DNA of 64,000 nucleotides from assembly GCF_014646195.1 (NCBI RefSeq), contig NZ_BMMZ01000017.1, forward strand, positions 1 through 64,000, written 5' to 3'. Both the position numbers and the translations under genes were made by a program. This DNA is from Microlunatus endophyticus (GTDB lineage: Bacteria; Actinomycetota; Actinomycetes; Propionibacteriales; Propionibacteriaceae). The notes beneath the pieces are model-generated. The model had not been told where the DNA came from. It worked only from the letters and a program-made list of their open reading frames with translations, and searched no databases. Within the stretch, counting starts at the first letter, position 1. Every line of letters begins with the position of its first letter. Of the stretch, positions 46,048 to 57,122 are shown one piece after another.

Positions 46048-46569
46048 CTACTTCTGTCCACGGGGCACATCGAAGTCGGTCAGCCGGGCGGACTGTTTGG
46101 ACAGATCGGCCCAGTTCCCGTCGTAGTCCAGCGAGGCCAGACCGCTGGTCGGGAATTTCTCGTCCATCCGTTTCCAGAGATTCTTGTGCCCCTTGCGCGG
46201 CGCCAGGCGGTCGACCAACTCGGGGACCGCCGGCGAATGTCCGATCAGCAGCACTGTCCGGACGTCGTCCGGTGTCTTGCGTAGCACTTTGACCAACTCG
46301 TGGGCGACTGCCTCGTAGAGATGATCGTCGTACTGCACGGTCCCGGCTGATGCGCCCGCGGCGACTGCCCGCTCCCAGGTCTCGCGCGCACGGACCGCAG
46401 TGGAGCACCAGACGAGATCGGGGTTGACATGGCGCTCCGCCAGCAACTGGCCCAGGGCGGCGCTGTCCCGTCGTCCCCGGCCGGACAGCGGACGCTCATG
46501 GTCGGGCACGTCGAGTCCCCAGGCCGATTTGGCGTGCCGGAGAAGGAAGATCCTGCGGCTGGTGCTCAT
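46048..46569 (-). CDS. SixA-type histidine phosphatase family protein
   Basis: A 173-residue single-domain phosphatase of the histidine-phosphatase superfamily. The active-site motif is IFLLRHAKSAW (RHG-type with catalytic His). Supporting residues lie in CSTAVRARETWERA and VLLIGHSPAVPELVDRL (second His). SixA acts on phosphohistidine, but most actinobacterial relatives are uncharacterised. It is convergent with the PhyH gene, nine bases apart. Confidence 0.85.
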   Translation of the reverse strand: MSTSRRIFLLRHAKSAWGLDVPDHERPLSGRGRRDSAALGQLLAERHVNPDLVWCSTAVRARETWERAVAAGASAGTVQYDDHLYEAVAHELVKVLRKTPDDVRTVLLIGHSPAVPELVDRLAPRKGHKNLWKRMDEKFPTSGLASLDYDGNWADLSKQSARLTDFDVPRGQK

Positions 46570-46725
46570 GACCCAACCCTAGGGAAACTCGTCAAGGCCA
46601 AAGTGGCCGGAAGGTTACGAGACGGCGGTGAGATCCTGCCTACCAGCTCTCGACCCGCACCTGCCACAAGAGCACCTTGGTACGGCCCACCTACCCGAGC
46701 TTCGCCGTTTGGCAGACTCCATCGG

Positions 46726-47520
46726 GTGATATCTGCAGAGGTGCTCCGGATCGGTGTCGAAGAGGCTCTCATCGATCGGTGGCGTGGCTGGTTCGCCCCG
46801 CCGGTGCAGCCGTTCCGCACTGATCTGCTCGGCCCTCAGATGGCAGCGGCAGTTCCGGTGCGTCAGGCAAGACCGACGGCCGAGTGGACTGACACATTCT
46901 TCATGTACTCCGGTACCTGGACGTGGCTGAGCGAAGACGAGTTCAGCTCGCTACGACCGAGCCTTCGACGCAGTCTGCTGGCGGTACGACGTCGAACGGT
47001 GCGTCCGAAGTTGATGCCGCTCTGGCCGTCGGAGCTGACTCGATCCGGCGATGATCCGATGCTTCGGTGGATCGCATCGGGAGCCGTCCGGCCCAGTCGG
47101 CACAAAGAGGTTCCCGGCAGGGTCTGGCAACGGGCGCAGGCGGTACTGCCGGAGGCTGAGCGGCTGGCGGGGACCTTTGCTGCCAGCGGTTCCGGCCCCA
47201 ACTGCTTCGGCACAGTGCTGGCTGCCACGGGTCTCGATCTCAGCGATGTTCAGGTTGGCCCGGACAAGTTTCAGGCTTGGTTGTGCGAGCACACCGAACG
47301 CGTCAGCGGCACCGGCAGCGATGACGAGGCGGGCATCGTTTTCGCCTGGACCGAGCACGGAGACCTGGCTCATGCAACTGTGACCGTTGGCGGCGGTTGG
47401 ATGTTGACCAAGCCGTCACAATCGTGGTCCAGTCCGCGATTGATCTATGGCGTGCGAGAAGCAGTCAACTCCTGGCGATATCCGGACACCCGTCTGGAGC
47501 GGTACCGCATCGTTCGGTAG
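46726..47520 (+). CDS. Hypothetical protein, possible NlpC/P60-like fold
   Basis: A 264-residue protein with a GTG start (VISAEVLRIG). I do not recognise the family with confidence. The C-terminal half carries SGPNCFGTVLAATG, a Cys at the start of a helix, and later GDLAHATVTVGGGWMLTKPSQSW, a His on a strand. This Cys...His order and spacing (about 55 residues) resembles papain-like NlpC/P60 enzymes. No signal peptide is seen, so a cytoplasmic role is likely. Proposed by pattern only. Confidence 0.55.
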   Translation: MISAEVLRIGVEEALIDRWRGWFAPPVQPFRTDLLGPQMAAAVPVRQARPTAEWTDTFFMYSGTWTWLSEDEFSSLRPSLRRSLLAVRRRTVRPKLMPLWPSELTRSGDDPMLRWIASGAVRPSRHKEVPGRVWQRAQAVLPEAERLAGTFAASGSGPNCFGTVLAATGLDLSDVQVGPDKFQAWLCEHTERVSGTGSDDEAGIVFAWTEHGDLAHATVTVGGGWMLTKPSQSWSSPRLIYGVREAVNSWRYPDTRLERYRIVR

Positions 47521-47552
47521 TCGAAGGCACTGATCTTGGTGGCGGGCCCCAG

Positions 47553-47709
47553 CTACTGGATGTTCTTGCGGAACGTGATCCAGGTCGGTTGGAAGCCAAG
47601 TTGCCGGATACTGGCGAACGTGTCGGCGTGCCAGGTCAACGATTCGAGTGCGAGATCGATGATTGCCTCAATGTCATGATCGTGGGGGTCGCACGCAACC
47701 TCGCCCAGC
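47553..47709 (-). pseudogene. Possible GNAT N-terminal remnant
   Basis: A short minus-strand frame without a start codon reads DPHDHDIEAIIDLALESLTW and stops at 47553. The wording is typical of the first helix of GNAT acetyltransferases, but the acetyl-CoA-binding half is absent. It lies directly beyond the stop of the NTF2-like gene. Confidence 0.3.
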
Positions 47710-48219
47710 TCAGCCGACGCCGTGGTCGACGATCCGCCAGGCGTGATCGGGTCCGACCTGCTGAAGTTCGTAGGTCCAGCCGTTGGTGCCAGGCTGGTAG
47801 CCGATGTCGGCTCCTCGAATATGGGTGTAGTCGAGGGCCACGTCGACAGCCCAGTAGCGGCTGTGCTGCCCGTACGTCGTGTCGTGGTGGCTGTCGATGA
47901 TCTTGAGGTGGCTCATGGTGCCGAGTGCTCGATGACGGTTGGCATTGTGGAATCGGCGTTGGCTGGGATAGAGCGCGTTCATGGTGTCGAAGTCGCGATG
48001 GTTGTACGCGGCGACGTAGGCGCGGACGACGTCATCAGGGCTGGCGCTCGGAGCTGGTACGCCGACTGATGCGGTCTGGAGGTTCAGCCGGTATCCGAAC
48101 GCCCACGCGCCGGACGTGCAGATCATGATCACGGCGATCAGGATGGCGGCAGGAGGAAGCCAGCGTCGTACCGCCGGAGATCGATCAGCGGTATCGACGG
48201 GCAGTCGCCGGTCAGCCAC
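47710..48219 (-). CDS. Membrane-anchored NTF2-like hypothetical protein
   Basis: A 169-residue protein with a GTG start that overlaps the end of the 41-residue micropeptide gene by eight bases. One membrane segment (AAILIAVIMICTSGAWAFG, about 23-42) is followed by an external domain with SPDDVVRAYVAAYNHRDFDTMNALY and a C-terminal YELQQVGPDHAWRIVDHGVG. This is the layout of SnoaL/NTF2-like proteins, often lipid-linked or membrane-tethered in actinobacteria. Function unknown. It is likely made with the micropeptide. Confidence 0.65.
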   Translation of the reverse strand: MADRRLPVDTADRSPAVRRWLPPAAILIAVIMICTSGAWAFGYRLNLQTASVGVPAPSASPDDVVRAYVAAYNHRDFDTMNALYPSQRRFHNANRHRALGTMSHLKIIDSHHDTTYGQHSRYWAVDVALDYTHIRGADIGYQPGTNGWTYELQQVGPDHAWRIVDHGVG

Positions 48220-48337
48220 GCCGCCGACCTCGGGTGACCGTGAACATGATCGCGGTGAATGCTCCGGCAATCACCACCAGACCTCCGAAAGCAACGAGCA
48301 CAAGGATCAGCAGCTCTGGTGCGCCCAGATCGAACAT
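48212..48337 (-). CDS. 41-residue single-span membrane micropeptide
   Basis: From ATG 48337, with GGAGGCG six bases upstream, a 41-codon frame begins MFDLGAPELLILVLVAFGG and contains one long hydrophobic helix (about 9-33). It ends in a basic TRGRRRG tail and a TGA. It overlaps the start of the NTF2-like gene by eight bases. The hydrophobic core with positive C-terminus predicts an N-out/C-in membrane peptide. Its role is unknown. The good ribosome site and overlap argue that it is real. Confidence 0.6.
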   Translation of the reverse strand: MFDLGAPELLILVLVAFGGLVVIAGAFTAIMFTVTRGRRRG

Positions 48338-48803
48338 GGTTCTCGCCTCCGTACCGGCACATTCCCCGCCGTGTCCAAGAGTGCCATTTCAGAGGCCTGC
48401 CGGGGGCGATTCGTCTGTAGTTGATCGGTGCCGGGATCTGGACTGCGCTTGTTCCATCGGACGCAACGGGCAGCCCGCGCATCGATCGAGTTCAATTCGT
48501 GGCGAACCTGTGGTTGACGTCACCGGGGAAGGTCGGTCAGGTCGGGGACTTGTCCAGCTCGGTCGTCCGTATCCGCACGGCGGCTATGCCGAGCGACGGC
48601 TGCACTGTGATCCATTGTCCGAGGTAGCCGTCGTGGCTGCGCGCTCCGCCATTAGTCGCTACCTGGTCGTACCAGTGTCAGAATCAGGTCGCGCCAGGTT
48701 GTGGCTCCCTTGCGAACGCGGCTGGGAATCATGTCAGCCGCCGGTGCGAGACGACCCCGGGCCACCTCTTCGTGCGATTCGCGCAATCCGGTCGGTCGAG
48801 GTC
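48338..48803. other. 466-base stretch with no intact gene
   Basis: No frame here looks functional. The minus strand between about 48490 and 48665 holds the decayed serine hydrolase end described separately. The rest (48338-48489 and 48666-48803) shows no recognisable gene or RNA. Confidence 0.55.
48490..48665 (-). pseudogene. C-terminal remnant of a beta-lactamase-family serine hydrolase
   Basis: The minus strand reads NGGARSHDGYLGQWITVQPS then LGIAAVRIRT, which is the characteristic end of class-C-type serine hydrolases (small-residue, Gly, Tyr-Leu-Gly-Gln, then the VxP strand). A frameshift near 48535 separates the final FPGDVNHRF-like piece. No upstream Ser-x-x-Lys half is present, so only the tail survives. 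Confidence 0.45.
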
Positions 48804-49781
48804 TTACTCGAACAGCTGCTCCCACTTTCGCGCGTTTGCCACAGTGTCAGGTAGTCGCTCGATTCGCTCGCGGATCTTCTGCTCCTCGTCCTGTGTGTCG
48901 AAGAAGCGGCCCAGAGTGTCGGCGATCTTCGACAAGTGCTGGCCGATCATTCGATCCAGCAGCCCGGGTCTCGCGGTGAGCGGTTGACCGCCGGCGGTCA
49001 CGTATGCCTGGTGCGAGCGATGTATCAGGTGAGGATCGGGCTCGTCGCGTCCTCTCCTGGCGAAGGAGGCGAAGACGTAGGCCGCTTCGAGCGGAATGCT
49101 TTCCGGACCGGTGGTGTCCCAATCGATCAGCATGGGCCGCCCATCGGCCATGAGCACGTTCCACGGCTCGAAGTCGCGATGGCTCAGCGCATAGGGTGGC
49201 GATGCGGTGAACGTCGCGACAACCCTTTCTGCTTGGTCCTGCACCAGGTCGAGATGTTCCCGCAGCGCTGGGGCCCAGACCGCGCCGGAGGCCTGACCGT
49301 CCTGCAGCCACTTTCGCCACCGATCCGCCGGTACCGGAGGAAACTGGCAATACCACCAGTTCGGGGCGGGTCGATGACTCAGGCGCTGAAGCCCATGGAT
49401 GAGTGCCAGTGTCGCTCCGATCCACTCGGCGATGTCGTCATCGTCGGAGAGCGGCAGGTGCTCGATGAAGGGAAACGCGCGGAACAGTCCGTGCCCGTCG
49501 ATTCGAGCGACTGACCCGAACAGCGGCCGTACAGGCTCGATTGGTGGTGGACTGTCGATGCCGACCTGGATCGCCTGCTTTTCGATCTTCATGGCGACGT
49601 CGAGTTGATCTTGCCACGGCAGCTCATCGTCGGCCCAGAAACGCTTGATCAGCACGGGTCCGGAGCCGGTCGGGATGCGCCAAGCTTCGACCTGGCCGCG
49701 TCGACGTATCAGGCGTGGGGGACCGATCGGATCAGCGAGACCAAATGCCTCGGCCATCGCTGCCACGTCCACGTCAGTCAC
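48804..49781 (-). CDS. Aminoglycoside phosphotransferase (APH)-fold kinase
   Basis: A 325-residue protein with a protein-kinase-like fold. The catalytic loop is ALSHRDFEPWNVLMADG (HxDxxxxN) and the metal-binding DxD-type motif is MLIDWDTTG. An N-lobe Lys lies in GPVLIKRFW. APH-fold enzymes phosphorylate aminoglycosides, choline, homoserine and other small molecules; no feature here fixes the substrate. Resistance is possible but unproven. A second APH-fold gene lies 45 bases downstream on the same strand, in the 49827-50705 block. Confidence 0.8.
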   Translation of the reverse strand: MTDVDVAAMAEAFGLADPIGPPRLIRRRGQVEAWRIPTGSGPVLIKRFWADDELPWQDQLDVAMKIEKQAIQVGIDSPPPIEPVRPLFGSVARIDGHGLFRAFPFIEHLPLSDDDDIAEWIGATLALIHGLQRLSHRPAPNWWYCQFPPVPADRWRKWLQDGQASGAVWAPALREHLDLVQDQAERVVATFTASPPYALSHRDFEPWNVLMADGRPMLIDWDTTGPESIPLEAAYVFASFARRGRDEPDPHLIHRSHQAYVTAGGQPLTARPGLLDRMIGQHLSKIADTLGRFFDTQDEEQKIRERIERLPDTVANARKWEQLFE

Positions 49782-49826
49782 AAGACCTGCATCGTATGAC
49801 AGCCGGGTATCGCGGTCGGGTGCCTG

Positions 49827-50705
49827 TCATGAGATCAGGGCCAGTGCGGCGGTTGCAGCCGAGATCATCTGCTGACCCTTGGCATCGCCGAACATCTTGG
49901 TCGCGAAGGCCAGGTACTTGATGTTTGCCCAAACGGTGGCAGTCAGCCGAGCGCGCTGCCAGTCAGGATCGGCGACAGGGTCGTGCCCGGTGAGATCCCG
50001 CCAGGTTCTCAGATAGGTCCGAAATCCGGTGCTGTCGGCTCCGCCGATGTTCGGCAGATCCAGCGCCGGCGACCCGATGAAGGAACCGCCCCAGTCGATG
50101 ATGTGTCCTTGTCCATTCGCCCCGACGAGCACGTTGTTCCGGTGGACATCGCCATGGATCAGCGTGCGGGGCAGTTGTTCCAGCGCCTCGAGAATCGCGT
50201 GAGCTTCTCGGAATTCCTTCACTTGTGCGCACAGCTCCTCCGCGACCGGGCGTTCCAGTGCATGGAGGCGCTTCATCGACACGTCGCATTTGGTACGCCA
50301 CCAATCGGGGTCGACAACCGGAACGCCGCGAGGCACCTGGATGCGCAGATAGTGTGCGTGTATCCGAGCCAGTGTTTCGATCACGTTGCCCGGCAGAGCC
50401 GATTCGCTCTTGGCAGGACTGGCAGCGTAGAACTCAGTCAGGATGTAGGGACCATCTGAGTTCTCGCCGGCGTAGATGAGTTCGGGGATCGCGGTCACGT
50501 CCGGAACACGCGCCGCCGCAGTCAGTGCAGCCACCTCGGTCGCGGATGTTTGCTTCAGCAGCAGCGTTCGCTCGACGGGTTGGCCGCCGCCGGTCAGTAT
50601 CACCTGGACTCGGAACGTTGATGCATCGCTGACTCCGCCAGCGACAGGCTCCCGTGCCACGACTTCGATCCCATTGCCGAACAGGGCCGCTGCATCGTCG
50701 GTCAT
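49827..50705 (-). CDS. APH-fold kinase, second copy
   Basis: A 292-residue kinase-fold protein clearly different in sequence from its neighbour. The catalytic loop is TLIHGDVHRNNVLVG and the metal motif is HIIDWGGSFIG, with an N-lobe Lys in TLLLKQTSA. IGGADSTGFRTYLRTWRDL lies in the C-lobe. The start is the ATG giving MTDDAAAL, divergent from a methyltransferase across 120 bases. The substrate is unknown; two adjacent members suggest an accessory locus. Confidence 0.8.
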   Translation of the reverse strand: MTDDAAALFGNGIEVVAREPVAGGVSDASTFRVQVILTGGGQPVERTLLLKQTSATEVAALTAAARVPDVTAIPELIYAGENSDGPYILTEFYAASPAKSESALPGNVIETLARIHAHYLRIQVPRGVPVVDPDWWRTKCDVSMKRLHALERPVAEELCAQVKEFREAHAILEALEQLPRTLIHGDVHRNNVLVGANGQGHIIDWGGSFIGSPALDLPNIGGADSTGFRTYLRTWRDLTGHDPVADPDWQRARLTATVWANIKYLAFATKMFGDAKGQQMISAATAALALIS

Positions 50706-50825
50706 GGCGACACAGACTAGGCGATTGGCGGGACGCTCTCGGAGGTGCGACTGCCGTCTACCCGGATCGTTCGAGGCCTCGCAATCACTGGGTGGCACAG
50801 CTCGGCAGATTGCGATACTGAGCCC

Positions 50826-51674
50826 GTGACCACCGAGGACATCAACGCGACCCGTATCTACTACGACCAGCTTGGAGAGCGGGAGTGGACCCGGCTCACG
50901 AGTGCTATCGCAGGCCGTGTCAGTTTTGAAGTGCACCGCCGGTTCCTTGCACGGTTTGTCGGGCGAGGAGACCGCGTCCTGGAGATCGGCGCCGGACCCG
51001 GACGATTCACGATCGAGCTGGCGGCGCTGGGCGCCCGCGTGGTCGTCAGTGATCTGTCGCCGGTGCAACTTGAGCTGAACAGGTTTCACGTTGCCAGGAC
51101 GCCTGCAGAGAGCGCGGTCGAAGATCGAGTACTCCTTGATGTGTGTGATGTCAGCCGCTATGCCGACGGCGAGTTCGACGCTGTCGTCGCGTACGGCGGC
51201 CCGCTGTCCTACGCGTTCGACGCCGCCGAGGATGCCCTAAATGGGCTGCTTCGGATCACTCGTCCCGGTGGGATGGTCGTTGCCTCGGTCATGTCGACGC
51301 TTGGGACGTGGCGCAGCTCGTTACCCGGAGTTCTGGGTGTCGCCCACCGGTTCGGTGAAGAAGTCAACGACAAGGTACTCGCCACTGGAGACATGCGTCA
51401 TCTGGTAGGGCTTGATCATGTTTGTCGGATGTTTCGAACCCGTCAGGTTGAGGAGTTGATTGATACGGTAGGTGGGGAGTCCGTCGCACTGAGCGCGAGC
51501 AACTGGGCGTCAATGAGCGATCCGTCGGCCCTGGAACCTCTTGAGGACGACCCCGAGCGCTGGAGGCATTTCCTTGACAACGAAGTCGCTGCCTGTGCGG
51601 AACCTGGCGCCACCGACGGTGGCACGCATATCCTCTTTGCGGCAGCGCCGGGTCGCGACGCGTCTGACGGATGA
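50826..51674 (+). CDS. Class I SAM-dependent methyltransferase
   Basis: A 282-residue enzyme (GTG start). The SAM site is GDRVLEIGAGPGRFTIELAALG (motif I), with RVVVSDLSPVQLEL as motif II and FDAVVAYGGPLSYAFDAAED as motif III/post-motif region. LLRITRPGGMVVASVMS follows. ATRIYYDQLGEREWTRL at the N-terminus is typical of small-molecule methyltransferases. The acceptor is unknown. It is divergent from the second APH-fold kinase. Confidence 0.83.
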   Translation: MTTEDINATRIYYDQLGEREWTRLTSAIAGRVSFEVHRRFLARFVGRGDRVLEIGAGPGRFTIELAALGARVVVSDLSPVQLELNRFHVARTPAESAVEDRVLLDVCDVSRYADGEFDAVVAYGGPLSYAFDAAEDALNGLLRITRPGGMVVASVMSTLGTWRSSLPGVLGVAHRFGEEVNDKVLATGDMRHLVGLDHVCRMFRTRQVEELIDTVGGESVALSASNWASMSDPSALEPLEDDPERWRHFLDNEVAACAEPGATDGGTHILFAAAPGRDASDG

Positions 51675-51837
51675 TTGACCTGGCTCAATGGCTGGCGATT
51701 AGATCCGATGAATGGATTTGTTGCGCACCTTCCCGGGAACGTCCGCTCGATCAACGACGGCCTGCGGCCTGCGGCGGTCGTCAACCTTGTCGCGTGCTAA
51801 CCGGCTACCCATCTGACGGCTGGGGTGGCGCCGTGAC

Positions 51838-52467
51838 TCAACGGACGAAGTTGAACCAGTGCGCTCCGACATCGAGCGGCTGCGGTGTTCCGGTGAACCG
51901 ATGCGAGCCGACCGACCACGAAGCGTTGTCCGGAGCAACGAAGGAGACTTCTTCGAATCCAGTTGTTCGGAACCACTCGCGGATCAGAGGTGTTAGGTCG
52001 GGCCCCTCGCGATGTCTCGTCCAGATGACATGGGCGCCGGCTCCGCAGAGTTGGGGCAGTGCGGCGATCGTGCCGTGGACGTCCTGGTCGCTGATGTTGC
52101 CGAACACACCACACATGAGTACGAGCTCGGCCGGCGCAGCTTCAGCGTAGACGCTGCTGTCGGCTGCATCGGCGCAGCGAACGGTTAGGTGCGCCGGGGA
52201 CCCTTCGATCGCCTTCCGGGCTCGTTCGGCGAGCCCAGGGTCGTATTCGACGAGGAGTCCTTCGACGCGGCTGGCATCATCGCGGACCGCCAAGGCCCCG
52301 AGGAGATCACGGCCGTCGCCTGAACACATGCTGATGACGCGAGCGAAGCCTGTGCCGGACATATCGAGGTAATGATTGATGGCCGTCCGCACTTCTGCCA
52401 GCCGTTCCGCCAAGCCCGACCCTGGACGTGTGTACGCCTCGTGCCATTCCACCCAATCTGCGCTCAC
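51838..52467 (-). CDS. SAM-dependent methyltransferase-like protein
   Basis: About 209 residues from a GTG; the upstream open frame is long but Arg/Pro-rich and out of family. Motifs are VSADWVEWHEAYTRPGSGLAERL (start of this family), VISMCSGDGRDLLGALAV (SAM motif I variant), VRCADAADSS and ELVLMCGVFGNISDQDVHG. FEEVSFVAPDNASWSVGSHRF follows near the end. Similar proteins are frequent in actinobacteria but uncharacterised. It is divergent from the HIT gene. Confidence 0.72.
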   Translation of the reverse strand: MSADWVEWHEAYTRPGSGLAERLAEVRTAINHYLDMSGTGFARVISMCSGDGRDLLGALAVRDDASRVEGLLVEYDPGLAERARKAIEGSPAHLTVRCADAADSSVYAEAAPAELVLMCGVFGNISDQDVHGTIAALPQLCGAGAHVIWTRHREGPDLTPLIREWFRTTGFEEVSFVAPDNASWSVGSHRFTGTPQPLDVGAHWFNFVR

Positions 52468-52532
52468 GAGGAACGATGCTGCCAGATTGGGGTGCCGGTC
52501 CGGCCAGCCCTGATAGATGTTGAGGTGTGTCG

Positions 52533-52982
52533 ATGCCTCATGTCGATGAGCCTGGCTGCCACTTCTGTGACGCACTCCGAGGACGGGAGCGCGGTGTGTT
52601 CTGCGCTTTCGATGACGGGCAGTTCGCGGTGCTGATGGGCCGGTACCAGCCGACGGGACCGGGCTATGCGCTCGTCGTTCCGTATGCGCACATCCCGGAC
52701 TTGCACTCACTGTCGCAAAGTGAGTGCGGGCAAGTGCTCCACTTGGTTGCACGGGTGTCGGCGGGTATCACCAGCGCGTTCGACGTGACCGGCACGACGG
52801 TCGTTGAGAACAACGGCCGTCCTGGTCAATCCGTGATGCATCTCCATTTCCACGTGGTTCCGCGGTGGGAGGGAGATCGATATCCCAGGCGGACCGAGAA
52901 ACCCGAGTCCGACCGCGTGTTGGCCGAGCAGTCCGCCCGGTTGGCCGCAGTCCTGGGTTCGTCGACAGGTCGCCCTCGATAG
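52533..52982 (+). CDS. HIT-family hydrolase
   Basis: A single-domain histidine-triad protein of about 149 residues. It has an N-terminal CHFCDAL Cys pair (zinc-type), GYALVVPYAHIPDLHSL, TTVVENNGRPGQSV and the triad MHLHFHVVPRWEGD. This is a normal, intact HIT enzyme of the Hint/GalT-like group, in contrast to the two-domain HIT protein at 18768-19571. The start is ATG 52533; GTG 52527 is also possible. Its nucleotide substrate is unknown. Confidence 0.88.
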   Translation: MPHVDEPGCHFCDALRGRERGVFCAFDDGQFAVLMGRYQPTGPGYALVVPYAHIPDLHSLSQSECGQVLHLVARVSAGITSAFDVTGTTVVENNGRPGQSVMHLHFHVVPRWEGDRYPRRTEKPESDRVLAEQSARLAAVLGSSTGRPR

Positions 52983-53005
52983 CGCAGCCAGGGTGATCGA
53001 CCTGT

Positions 53006-53137
53006 GCGATCAAGCTCCGTGCCGGCCCACTGCGGTACGGCGAGTTCGAGGTGATCAGCTCCTACGAGAGCGACGATGCCGTGATCGTCGAGATGACGCT
53101 ACGCGACGGCAATGCGGGCGGTTCCGCGGTTACCTGA
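53006..53137 (+). other. Coding-like fragment without a start
   Basis: The frame reads LRYGEFEVISSYESDDAVIV and MTLRDGNAGG, ordinary protein-like sequence, but has a stop immediately upstream and no start codon. It may be the tail of a lost gene. I do not recognise the family. Confidence 0.25.
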
Positions 53138-53189
53138 ACCCAGGCATGGTCGGGCAGTGCGATACCGAGTGGCGTCGGGCGGACCGGCC

Positions 53190-53961
53190 GTGATCGATTG
53201 TGCGCTTGTGGATGACGTCCGGGTGGAACAGATCGATCTCGCGGCATCGGATCGGTTGGTGGAGTGGAACGACATCCTCCGCCAGGGGTACGTAGCCGGA
53301 CGGGAGGCTGTTTGGTGGCGCAGTGCCGAGGCGACGGTTTCCCAGTTTCAGTCGCCAAAGCCCGGCCGGGTTTCGGTCGCGGTGCTGGCAATGGACGGCG
53401 GTCGACCCGTCGGCGCTCGACCTGCCGATGAGCGCCGAGCAGCTGACCCGACTTGGCCGCCCATCGGCGAGGGCCGAGATCAAGGGGTGGGTCGGCAGAT
53501 GTCCGGAGGAGCTGATCGAGGACTGGGCAAGTCTGACACGGCAGATGGACGTCGACGTGCCGATGGGGGATCTGACGCGATCGTCAAAGGTCACAGACGT
53601 TTCCGCAGTCCGGCAGAACGAGGAACGGATGCTCGCCCAGGGCTACATCCCGATCAACTGCCTGGCGCAGATCGCCGGGCGGAGCGTCGGCTACACCGAA
53701 CTGCTGGTATCCAGCCACGATCCCGAGATCGTCAACCAGGACGACACTCTCGTCGATCGAGCACATCGCGGCAACGGCGTTGGACGGGCACTGAAGCTGG
53801 CGAACCTTCGACAGCTCCTGGAAGTGCCGCAAGCGAGGCGTTCCCGCTGGGTCCAGACGTACACCGCAAGGGACAACGAACCGATGCTGGCGCTGAATCG
53901 CGCGATCGGTTTCCGTGAAGCAGACGTCATGACGGCTTTGGAGGGGCCACTTGCCCGGTAG
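53190..53961 (+). pseudogene. Tandem-GNAT acetyltransferase with deletion and frameshift
   Basis: From GTG 53190 the frame gives a family-like N-terminus (VIDCALVDDVRVEQIDLA, RVSVAVLAMDGG). Near 53400 it fuses to DPSALDLPMSAEQLTRLG in a different frame. Intact relatives carry a first GNAT domain of ~100 residues between these points, and it is missing here. The second GNAT half survives: WVGRCPEELIEDWASLTRQM, AQIAGRSVGYTELLVSSHDP, VDRAHRGNGVGRALKLANL (CoA loop) and LNRAIGFREADV. A truncated product from ATG 53429 is conceivable. Its end overlaps the convergent flavoprotein gene. Confidence 0.7.
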
Positions 53962-55195
53962 CAGCGCCGAGCGCGACCTTGGCCTCGGCGAACGGCCTGC
54001 GATCGGAGATCAGTTGCTGGGCGTGCTCGTAGACGTCGTCCCATTCGTGGCACAACACGCCGACGATCAGCCCGTCGCCGGCATACACGACGGCCCAACC
54101 GGCCGCATTCTCGAGTAGCTCAGCGTGGTCGAAGCCGTCGCCCCAGGCGCTGTACTTCAGGGTGCGGTCACCGATCTCCGACCAGAAACCCGGCGGCTGA
54201 TCCCAGGCTGCACCCTGGCCGGCAATGGCCCGGCCCGCGATCTCGCCCATAGTCTCCGCTTCGCCCCAGTGCTCGACCCGCAGCGGCCGGCCGGCTGCAC
54301 GATTGACCGCAGACGCGACATCGCCAGCCGCCCAGATCTGCTGATCGGACGACCGCATGCTCGCGTCGACGGCGATCGCGTCGTCGCGGATGGACAGGCC
54401 GGCCTCGCGCGCCAAGGACGCATCGGGTGTGGCGCCACTCGCGCTGACAACAGCGTCGCACCCAAGCGCGCGGCCGTCGGCCAGTGTCACCTGCCACCCG
54501 TCGCCGTCGCGCTCGATGCGCGACACCTTCGCGTCGGTCTGCAGGTCGACACCGTCGCTGCGCAACCATTCGGCGACACGGTGGCCTGCGTCCGGCCCGA
54601 GCCGTCGCTCGTGGGGGACTGCCTCGGGGGTAAGCATCGTGACCATGGTTCCGGTGCGGGCCAGACTGGCCGCGGCTTCGCAGCCGATGAATCCCGACCC
54701 GATGACGACGGCCCTGATGTCTGCACCGCGGAGCCCGCGCAGCCGCTCACCGCTGGCGCGGTCGCGCACGTAGATCACGCCGGGGTGGTCTGCGCCTTCC
54801 ACGGGAAGTACGGCCGGCCTCGATCCGGTCGCCAACACCAGCTGGTCGTACGCCACCGCGTCCCCCGCCGCGGTGATGACCTGGCGCGCGTCGCGGTCGA
54901 TCCGGGTCACGCGGGTATCGAGGACCAGACCGACATCGTGCTGCGCGTACCAGTCGGCGTCGACCAGCGGCAGCGTGTCCGCAGCGGACTCGCCGCGCAG
55001 ATAGTCCTTGGTCAAGGGCGGCCGGTTGTACGGCGGGTACTGGTCCGCGCTGATCATCAACACCGGCGCGCTCCCGCCGGCGTCGCGGTATCCCCGCGCA
55101 CACGCGAGCCCAGCCGGCCCGCCGCCGACAATCAGCAGACCCACTCGATGTGAACCGGAACCCAGACCGTCGCGGTCGTCGTGCCCAACAGACAT
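53927..55195 (-). CDS. FAD/NAD(P)-dependent oxidoreductase (ferredoxin-reductase-like)
   Basis: A 422-residue flavoprotein. The FAD loop is LLIVGGGPAGLACARGY, followed by YPPYNRPPLTKDYLRG. The NAD(P) loop is AVVIGSGFIGCEAAASLA, and the FAD-closing motif is QIWAAGDVASAVNRAAG. HWGEAETMGEIAGRAIAGQG lies in the C-terminal domain. Such enzymes pass electrons to rubredoxin or ferredoxin in oxygenase systems or detoxification; no electron-carrier gene is adjacent. The start chosen is ATG 55195. Confidence 0.88.
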   Translation of the reverse strand: MSVGHDDRDGLGSGSHRVGLLIVGGGPAGLACARGYRDAGGSAPVLMISADQYPPYNRPPLTKDYLRGESAADTLPLVDADWYAQHDVGLVLDTRVTRIDRDARQVITAAGDAVAYDQLVLATGSRPAVLPVEGADHPGVIYVRDRASGERLRGLRGADIRAVVIGSGFIGCEAAASLARTGTMVTMLTPEAVPHERRLGPDAGHRVAEWLRSDGVDLQTDAKVSRIERDGDGWQVTLADGRALGCDAVVSASGATPDASLAREAGLSIRDDAIAVDASMRSSDQQIWAAGDVASAVNRAAGRPLRVEHWGEAETMGEIAGRAIAGQGAAWDQPPGFWSEIGDRTLKYSAWGDGFDHAELLENAAGWAVVYAGDGLIVGVLCHEWDDVYEHAQQLISDRRPFAEAKVALGAATGQVAPPKPS

Positions 55196-55292
55196 GCTGA
55201 GGAGGTACCCAGGTCGGTCGGCTCAAGCAGATGAATCCGCAGTCGACCCGCTGACATCGGGATAGACGGGGCCGCTGCGTAGACTCCCGGGC

Positions 55293-57122
55293 GTGGTGGA
55301 CGAGGGGCTGACGGCCGAGCAAGTGCTGCAGCGAGTCTTCGGCTACGACAGCTTCCGCGGCAGCCAGGCCGAGATCACCCGGCAGCTGATCGACGGCGGC
55401 GACGCTCTGGTGCTGATGCCGACCGGTGGCGGCAAATCGCTGTGCTACCAGATCCCCGCACTCGTACGACCCGGGACCGGCATCGTGATCTCCCCGCTGA
55501 TCGCGTTGATGCAGGACCAGGTCGACGCTCTGCTGGCTCTCGGCGTACGCGCCGGGTTCCTCAATTCCAGCCAGGACTACCAGGCCCGGCAGGAGACCGA
55601 GCAGGCACTGCTCGCCGGTGATCTTGACCTTCTGTATCTGGCACCCGAACGACTCCGGCTGCCGGCCACCATCGAACTGCTCGACCGGGTCAGCGCCCGG
55701 ACCGGGATCGCCCTGTTCGCGATCGACGAAGCACACTGTGTTTCCCAATGGGGACATGACTTCAGGCCCGACTACCTCGAGCTGTCGGCACTGCACCAGC
55801 GCTGGCCGGACGTGCCGCGGATCGCGCTGACCGCAACCGCGACCAAGGCAACCCGGGACGAGATCGTCCAGCGACTTGATCTTGGCAACGCCGCACAATT
55901 CGTGTCCAGCTTCGACCGGCCCAACATCACCTATCGGATCGTCGCCAAGGACAACCCGCGCCGGCAGCTGCTCGACCTGATCAGGACCGAGCACTCCGAC
56001 GACGCGGGGATCGTCTACTGCCTGAGCCGGGCATCGGTCGAGGACACCGCGGACTTCCTTTCCCAGCAGGGAATTCCGGCTCTTCCGTACCACGCCGGCC
56101 TCGACCAGCGGACCCGTCGTGATCATCAGGCCCGGTTCCTCCGCGAGGACGGGTTGATCATGGTCGCCACCATCGCCTTCGGGATGGGCATCGATAAACC
56201 GGACGTACGCTTCGTCGCCCACCTCGACCTGCCCAAGTCGGTCGAGGGCTACTACCAGGAGACCGGCCGGGCAGGCCGCGACGGTCAGCCCGCCACCGCT
56301 TGGCTGAGCTACGGACTGCAGGACGTCGTCCAGCAGCGGCGGTTGATCAACAACGGCGACGGGGACATCAACTACAAGCGCCAGCAGACCGCCCATCTGG
56401 ACGCGATGCTGGCGCTCTGCGAAACCGTGCAGTGCCGACGCCGGCAACTGCTGGACTACTTCGGCCAGAGTGCCGACGACTGCGGCAACTGCGACACCTG
56501 CCTGCAGCCGGCCCAGTCCTGGGACGGCACCGTCGCGGCTCAGAAGGTGCTGTCGACCGTCTACCGGCTGCACACCGAACGCCGCCAGCACTTCGGTGCC
56601 GGGCACATCATCGACATCCTGACCGGCAGCGCGACGGCGAAGATCGAACAGTTCCGGCACCAGCAGCTGAGCGTGTTCGGGGTGGGGGCTGATCTCGACC
56701 CGGTGGCCTGGCGGGCGGTGATCCGGCAACTGCTCGCCCAGGGATACCTGGCGGTCGAATCCGATCACGGCACTCTGGGGCTGACCGACAAGAGCCGGGA
56801 TGTGCTGTTCGAGCACGCCGAGGTCCGGCTGCGCCGCGACCCCGAGCGCAGGAAGCCGGTCCGGACCAAGACCGCCAAGCAGGTTGTCGAGCTGCCCGCC
56901 GAGGCGATGCCGATCTTCGAGCGGCTCCGCGACTGGCGCGCCGCGACGGCCAAGCAACAGGGGATTCCGGCCTACGTGATCTTCCACGACGCGACGCTGC
57001 GCGACATCGCCACCCGGCGGCCGCAGGATCTGGCCGGACTGGCGGGAATCAGTGGTGTCGGTGAGGCGAAGCTGGAGCGGTACGGGGAGCAGCTACTTGC
57101 CGTGCTGGGCGAGAATCGCTAA
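55293..57122 (+). CDS. recQ: ATP-dependent DNA helicase RecQ
   Basis: A 3'-5' DNA helicase for repair and recombination. In the 609-residue protein motif I is [17 protein letters not shown], motif [22 protein letters not shown], motif [17 protein letters not shown], and motifs V/VI are [20 protein letters not shown] and [15 protein letters not shown]. Four zinc-binding Cys occur around [16 protein letters not shown] and [12 protein letters not shown] winged-helix (RQC) and a C-terminal HRDC-like segment ([11 protein letters not shown]-type at about 570-600) follow. It starts at GTG 55293. A structured convergent region separates it from DUF3039. Confidence 0.93.

What the first reader, a model, noticed from the sequence alone, without database searches (positions are those of the whole stretch)
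48212..48337. A 41-residue membrane micropeptide overlapping its neighbour
It is too short for ordinary gene finding but has GGAGGCG, an ATG, one clean membrane helix and a basic tail. It also has an eight-base overlap with a membrane-anchored NTF2-like gene. Coupled translation suggests a functional pair.
Basis: partly seen in the sequence, partly recalled or inferred. Interest (0 to 1): 0.55.

Follow-up and report, generated by a model that had tools for sequence, protein, structure and literature searches.

The report
Membrane micropeptide with TatB-like head
An actinobacterium carries a tiny membrane protein whose first residues copy those with which TatB, part of the export machine for folded proteins, grips its partner, so it may act as a natural decoy or modulator of that machine, although this has not been tested.

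Summary
The 41-codon frame at 48337-48212 (-) has a good Shine-Dalgarno site, gene-like codon usage and one long membrane helix. It is the only such ORF in the window, and none appeared in 100 shuffles. It overlaps the GTG start (48219) of an NTF2-like gene by eight bases.

The proposed pair with the NTF2-like gene is only partly supported. None of 23 NTF2-like homologues examined has the micropeptide in front. It was not found in any other genome searched. Both genes lie in an 8.7-kb variable segment between sixA and recQ.

MFDLGAPELL is the TatB signature, start codon included, with Asp3 and Glu8, the residue that TatB needs to bind TatC in E. coli. It matches the genome's own tatB at 27 of 30 nucleotides. 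Among 20,712 start-anchored 17-mers, eight tatB starts score 46-61 and the next best scores 30. The TatB hinge and amphipathic helix are missing; a plain 26-residue membrane stretch and a basic tail replace them. It fails the TatA_B_E family test.

Best reading: a real orphan membrane micropeptide with a TatB-type head, possibly a TatC-site decoy or modulator. That mechanism is inferred, and only one genome is known.

The parts
48212..48337 (-). 41-aa membrane micropeptide ORF (ATG...TGA): TatB-type head (residues 1 to about 10-17), 26-residue hydrophobic stretch (9-34), basic tail TRGRRRG
48308..48337 (-). codons 1-10, MFDLGAPELL: 27 of 30 nt identical to the start of the genome's own tatB (C1:162176); Asp3 and Glu8 present
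48344..48350 (-). GGAGGCG, Shine-Dalgarno for the micropeptide (GGAGG, 8-nt spacer)
48212..48219 (-). 8-base overlap of micropeptide end and NTF2-like gene start
48228..48231 (-). GAGG, Shine-Dalgarno-like site for the NTF2-like gene, inside the micropeptide's codons
47710..48219 (-). 169-aa NTF2-like protein with N-terminal membrane anchor or signal peptide (helix 23-45), GTG start
46570..55313 (.). variable segment between sixA and recQ that holds the pair; absent or replaced in two relatives

Best explanation
It is a real, lineage-restricted gene for a single-pass membrane micropeptide (N-terminus outside, C-terminus inside), translated just ahead of, and probably coupled to, an NTF2-like exported or anchored protein. 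Its head is the TatB N-terminal signature with Asp3 and Glu8. Most likely mechanism: the head lets it sit at the TatB (polar-cluster) site on the cell's single TatC. Because it lacks the hinge and amphipathic helix, it cannot do TatB's job, so it would dampen or bias Tat transport, perhaps while the accessory NTF2-like protein is made. Shown by computation: the ORF, its coding character, the helix, and the TatB-specific head. Inferred: topology, coupling, TatC binding, effect on Tat.
For: Coding. TatB head: start-aligned BLOSUM62 score of 61 to the best of eight genus/family tatB starts; 0 of 20,000 class-preserving shuffles reach it (z 5.6 in a run of 5,000). Of 20,712 distinct start-anchored 17-mers in all DNA held, the eight tatB starts score 46-61 and the next best 30. 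The degenerate pattern for MFDxGxxEL hits 7 places in 197 family genomes, six tatB genes and this ORF, with no hit of the reversed control; in 197 class genomes it hits only the own tatB and this ORF. At DNA level 27 of 30 nt match the own tatB, against at most 20 in 613,128 non-tat 30-mers. TatB Glu8 is needed for TatC binding in E. coli (passages of PMC5201420); Asp3/Glu8 charges mark E. coli TatB (passages of PMC5777986; sequence). The genome has one tatC, two tatA-type genes and one tatB.
Against: Known from one genome only: no homologue in 391 order or 394 class genomes, plasmids or phages. No match to PF02416 up to E 10. The hinge Pro and amphipathic helix are missing and the hydrophobic stretch is longer than TatA/TatB helices. 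The head's similarity ends after about 10-17 codons and the rest does not resemble tatB DNA (682 of 2000 codon shuffles do as well). Not linked to tat genes. The pattern and the shuffle test were made after TatB had come up in a search. No expression or interaction data.
Confidence: 0.35

Rival explanations
1. A translated leader: the first codons were copied recently from tatB (or are a chance product), and the short frame mainly delivers ribosomes to the NTF2-like start by termination-reinitiation. The peptide itself has no Tat role and may be degraded.
For: 8-base overlap with an internal SD; 27 of 30 nt shared with the own tatB, more than with other tatB genes of the genus and family (22-25); found in one genome only; variable segment.
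Against: The tail is a clean membrane helix with a basic end and gene-like codons, more than a leader needs. The excess of shared synonymous codons is weak (P 0.077), and the 60 bases upstream are unlike tatB's (17 of 60), so copying is not shown.
Confidence: 0.3
2. A partner of the NTF2-like protein: the micropeptide binds its membrane anchor; the TatB-like head is convergent.
For: Gene overlap; both predicted membrane proteins.
Against: 0 of 23 NTF2-like homologues has it upstream. The head's match to TatB is far beyond other N-termini.
Confidence: 0.2
3. A spurious ORF, not translated.
For: Single-genome orphan; 40 open codons are not rare at this GC; no consensus sigma-70 promoter found.
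Against: SD, codon score, membrane helix absent from shuffles, TatB head aligned at the start codon.
Confidence: 0.07

Closest known systems
TatB (TatA/B/E family, Pfam PF02416)
   Same: Start-aligned MFDxGAPELL head, Asp3 and Glu8, acidic N-flank and basic C-flank (N-out/C-in by the positive-inside rule, recalled).
   Different: No match to the PF02416 model; no FGP hinge (FGG three residues earlier); no amphipathic helix; 26-residue hydrophobic stretch; 41 aa against 149; not near tat genes.
TatE and TatA paralogues
   Same: Small TatA-family accessory subunits that interact with TatC.
   Different: They keep hinge and amphipathic helix (recalled; 63-78 aa for the shorter paralogues in passages of PMC5777986); polar residue 8 is Lys or Gln there, here Glu.
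Small single-pass bacterial membrane proteins that modulate a larger complex (such as CydX, AcrZ, KdpF; recalled, not tested)
   Same: Tens of residues, one helix, overlooked by gene finders.
   Different: This one is a single-genome orphan whose only clue to a target is the TatB head.

Membership tests
TatA/B/E family (PF02416) | Match to the family profile over its cut-off | tested here: not met
   No Pfam match up to E 10 while own TatB matches at 6.4e-9; whole-genome search finds three tat genes and not this one; NCBIfam TatB model only E 0.2 over residues 1-17.
TatA/B/E family (PF02416) | TatB-type N-terminus with polar residue 8 (Glu) | tested here: met
   E. coli TatB sequence.
TatA/B/E family (PF02416) | FGP hinge after a short membrane helix | tested here: not met
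   Residues 9-34 are an unbroken hydrophobic stretch; FGG at 17-19; one helix 6-40 in the model.
TatA/B/E family (PF02416) | Cytoplasmic amphipathic helix | tested here: not met
   Only TRGRRRG, seven residues, follows the membrane stretch.
TatA/B/E family (PF02416) | Binding to TatC | not testable with these tools
   Needs co-purification or cross-linking.
NTF2-like superfamily (the neighbour) | Fold similarity to NTF2-like proteins | tested here: inconclusive
   Model pLDDT 67; many of the top Foldseek hits are Mtr2, ketosteroid isomerase and NTF2-like chains but the best E is 3.8e-3; Pfam DUF4829 0.018 and SnoaL_2 0.061, below cut-off.

The most novel reading that the evidence does not exclude
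A natural Tat decoy: an accessory-segment micropeptide that carries TatB's TatC-binding head on a plain membrane helix and occupies the polar-cluster site, inhibiting or re-tuning export of folded proteins, possibly to favour or spare the co-translated NTF2-like protein.
Probability: 0.22. Interest if true: 0.75.

Novelty: new variant of a known kind. Interest (0 to 1): 0.47.

Why it matters
If it binds TatC, it would be an encoded micropeptide regulator of the Tat translocase and a ready-made probe of the TatB/TatA exchange at the polar-cluster site. It would also show that a fragment of a translocon subunit can become a separate small gene. The four paper searches made here (only the listings looked at, apart from passages of three papers) showed no such case; that is a limited check. 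If it is only a leader, it is still an example of a small membrane ORF next to an accessory gene.

Tried and rejected
Homologue hunt for the micropeptide. 96 relatives at E 1: the start-anchored hits of note were to residues 1-16 or 1-17, tatB where read; the others I read were membrane stretches of larger proteins. 391 order genomes at E 0.05 and 394 class genomes at E 0.02: nothing convincing. Plasmids and phages: no match. PDB: none. PHROGs: none.

The C-terminal half (AFTAIMFTVTRGRR) resembles the second membrane segment of a 178-185-aa open frame of the genus at 7 of 14 residues, while DNA identity to the own genome's copy is only 43 of 93, so I took it as generic. A Pfam scan of part of one such protein gave no family.

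Copy of tatB at DNA level: 27 of 30 nt, but the synonymous excess has P 0.077 and the upstream bases are unlike, so descent against convergence is undecided.

The NTF2-like scan of genome contigs with a single protein found no relatives; with alignment A1 it found five, three of which are, by matching place or sequence, also among the 21 loci. Upstream regions of six weak family hits (L057-L062) were not examined. Rfam: no match. tRNA: none. I recognised no direct repeats flanking the segment among the repeats found.

Full report
Observation. The ORF at 48337-48212 (-) is as described: ATG, 41 codons, GGAGG with an 8-nt spacer, and an 8-base overlap with a GTG-started 169-aa frame that has its own GAGG site inside the micropeptide's codons. 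It is the only ATG ORF of 30-70 aa in the window with a 19-residue hydropathy of at least 2.2; 100 dinucleotide shuffles give none. Its codon score is ordinary for genes here (37th percentile of 364 in-frame windows) and is reached by 2.7% of 1820 off-frame windows. I take it as a real gene.

Neighbour. The 169-aa protein is modelled with an N-terminal helix followed by an alpha-alpha-beta layout. Many of Foldseek's best hits are NTF2-like chains, at weak E-values (3.8e-3 and up). Homologues are scattered: 6 of 96 relatives, 12 of 198 family genomes at E 0.001 and 22 of 391 order genomes at E 1e-6, the own genome included in each. One homologue (L049) has a lipoprotein-like N-terminus (judged by eye), which fits a domain outside the cytoplasm.

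Is it a conserved pair? No. Upstream of the 21 other loci there is no TatB-like micropeptide; two have unrelated hydrophobic ORFs. Two further homologues, L047 and L049, have none. The nearest, G012 (62% identity), has no such frame. It also lies elsewhere in the chromosome: in G012 the NTF2-like gene, the APH-like gene and the sixA-side flank match at three separate places.

Setting. In G006 the window's flanks at 46561 and 55314 lie 143 bases apart. In G007 the same interval holds a major-facilitator gene between sixA and recQ. So about 8.7 kb (46.57-55.31) is variable. Most of it is lower in GC (62-65% over 47-53 kb, against 67.4% for the window), and it carries two APH-like kinases, a methyltransferase, a GNAT and a pyridine-nucleotide oxidoreductase.

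The TatB head. In the relatives search a set of start-anchored hits to residues 1-16 or 1-17 lay, in the genus, in frames of about 140-160 aa, which proved to be tatB where read. The own TatB begins MFDMGAPELLVLGMLAIIVFGPDKLP; the micropeptide begins MFDLGAPELLILVLVAFGGLVV. The DNA pattern for MFDxGxxEL, exact, occurs 7 times in 197 family genomes: six tatB starts and this ORF; the reversed control has none. In 197 class genomes it hits only the own tatB and this ORF. Most tatB genes of these genomes do not match the exact pattern, so it measures specificity, not how many tatB genes there are. Scored against all 20,712 distinct start-anchored 17-mers in the DNA held, the eight tatB starts give 46-61 and the best other 30. 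Class-preserving shuffles never reach 61 (0 of 20,000). These tests were framed after TatB had appeared, and part of the DNA held was fetched as hits to this query or to tatB, so some selection is built in, but the gap is wide.

At DNA level codons 1-10 agree with the own tatB at 27 of 30 bases, other tatB genes at 22-25, and non-tat DNA at 20 at most in 613,128 places. Given the same residues, sharing 6 of 8 synonymous codons has P 0.077; the upstream 60 bases (17 identical) and the rest of the frame are unlike tatB. A short copy of tatB's start and convergence both remain open.

What is missing. The profile PF02416 does not match. The FGP hinge and the amphipathic helix are absent; residues 9-34 are one hydrophobic stretch, modelled as one helix 6-40. 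A 2026 review (passages of PMC13186574) states that TatA and TatB need the membrane anchor, the following amphipathic helix and a few more residues for function. So this is not a working TatB.

Mechanism. In E. coli, TatB Glu8 mediates binding to TatC at a polar cluster, and TatA can replace TatB there (abstract and passages of PMC5201420). Asp3 and Glu8 are TatB's N-terminal charges (passages of PMC5777986, which name the positions; residues). Both are kept here, and the flank charges give the same orientation. I therefore favour a peptide that can occupy that site without completing TatB's job. The genome has a single tatC match, next to a tatA. TatC binding and any effect on export are inference. 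A leader role for the NTF2-like gene is the main rival and could hold at the same time.

Limits. One genome; no close relative with the locus; no expression data. The collections were sampled (391 order, 394 class and 197 + 197 pattern genomes), not exhausted.

Noticed in passing
window 46570-55313: Variable 8.7-kb segment between sixA and recQ, mostly of lower GC, with two APH-like kinases, a methyltransferase, a GNAT and a pyridine-nucleotide oxidoreductase; 143 bases in G006, a major-facilitator gene in G007.
   Followed up: partly
L067 1177-1623; L071; L072; L096: Own tatB is unlinked to tatA-tatC; there is a second TatA-type gene on another contig, and the tatA beside tatC has FGG where FGP is usual.
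   Followed up: no
L052 (G017, M. flavus): The NTF2-like frame reads on into a 320-aa open frame with extra sequence after the domain: a fusion, or a sequencing or annotation matter.
   Followed up: no
L066 1501 onward: A protein starting MSDAAANALLIVVAIAYLGGAVVVVGAL is the best non-TatB start match to the micropeptide (score 30); probably chance.
   Followed up: no
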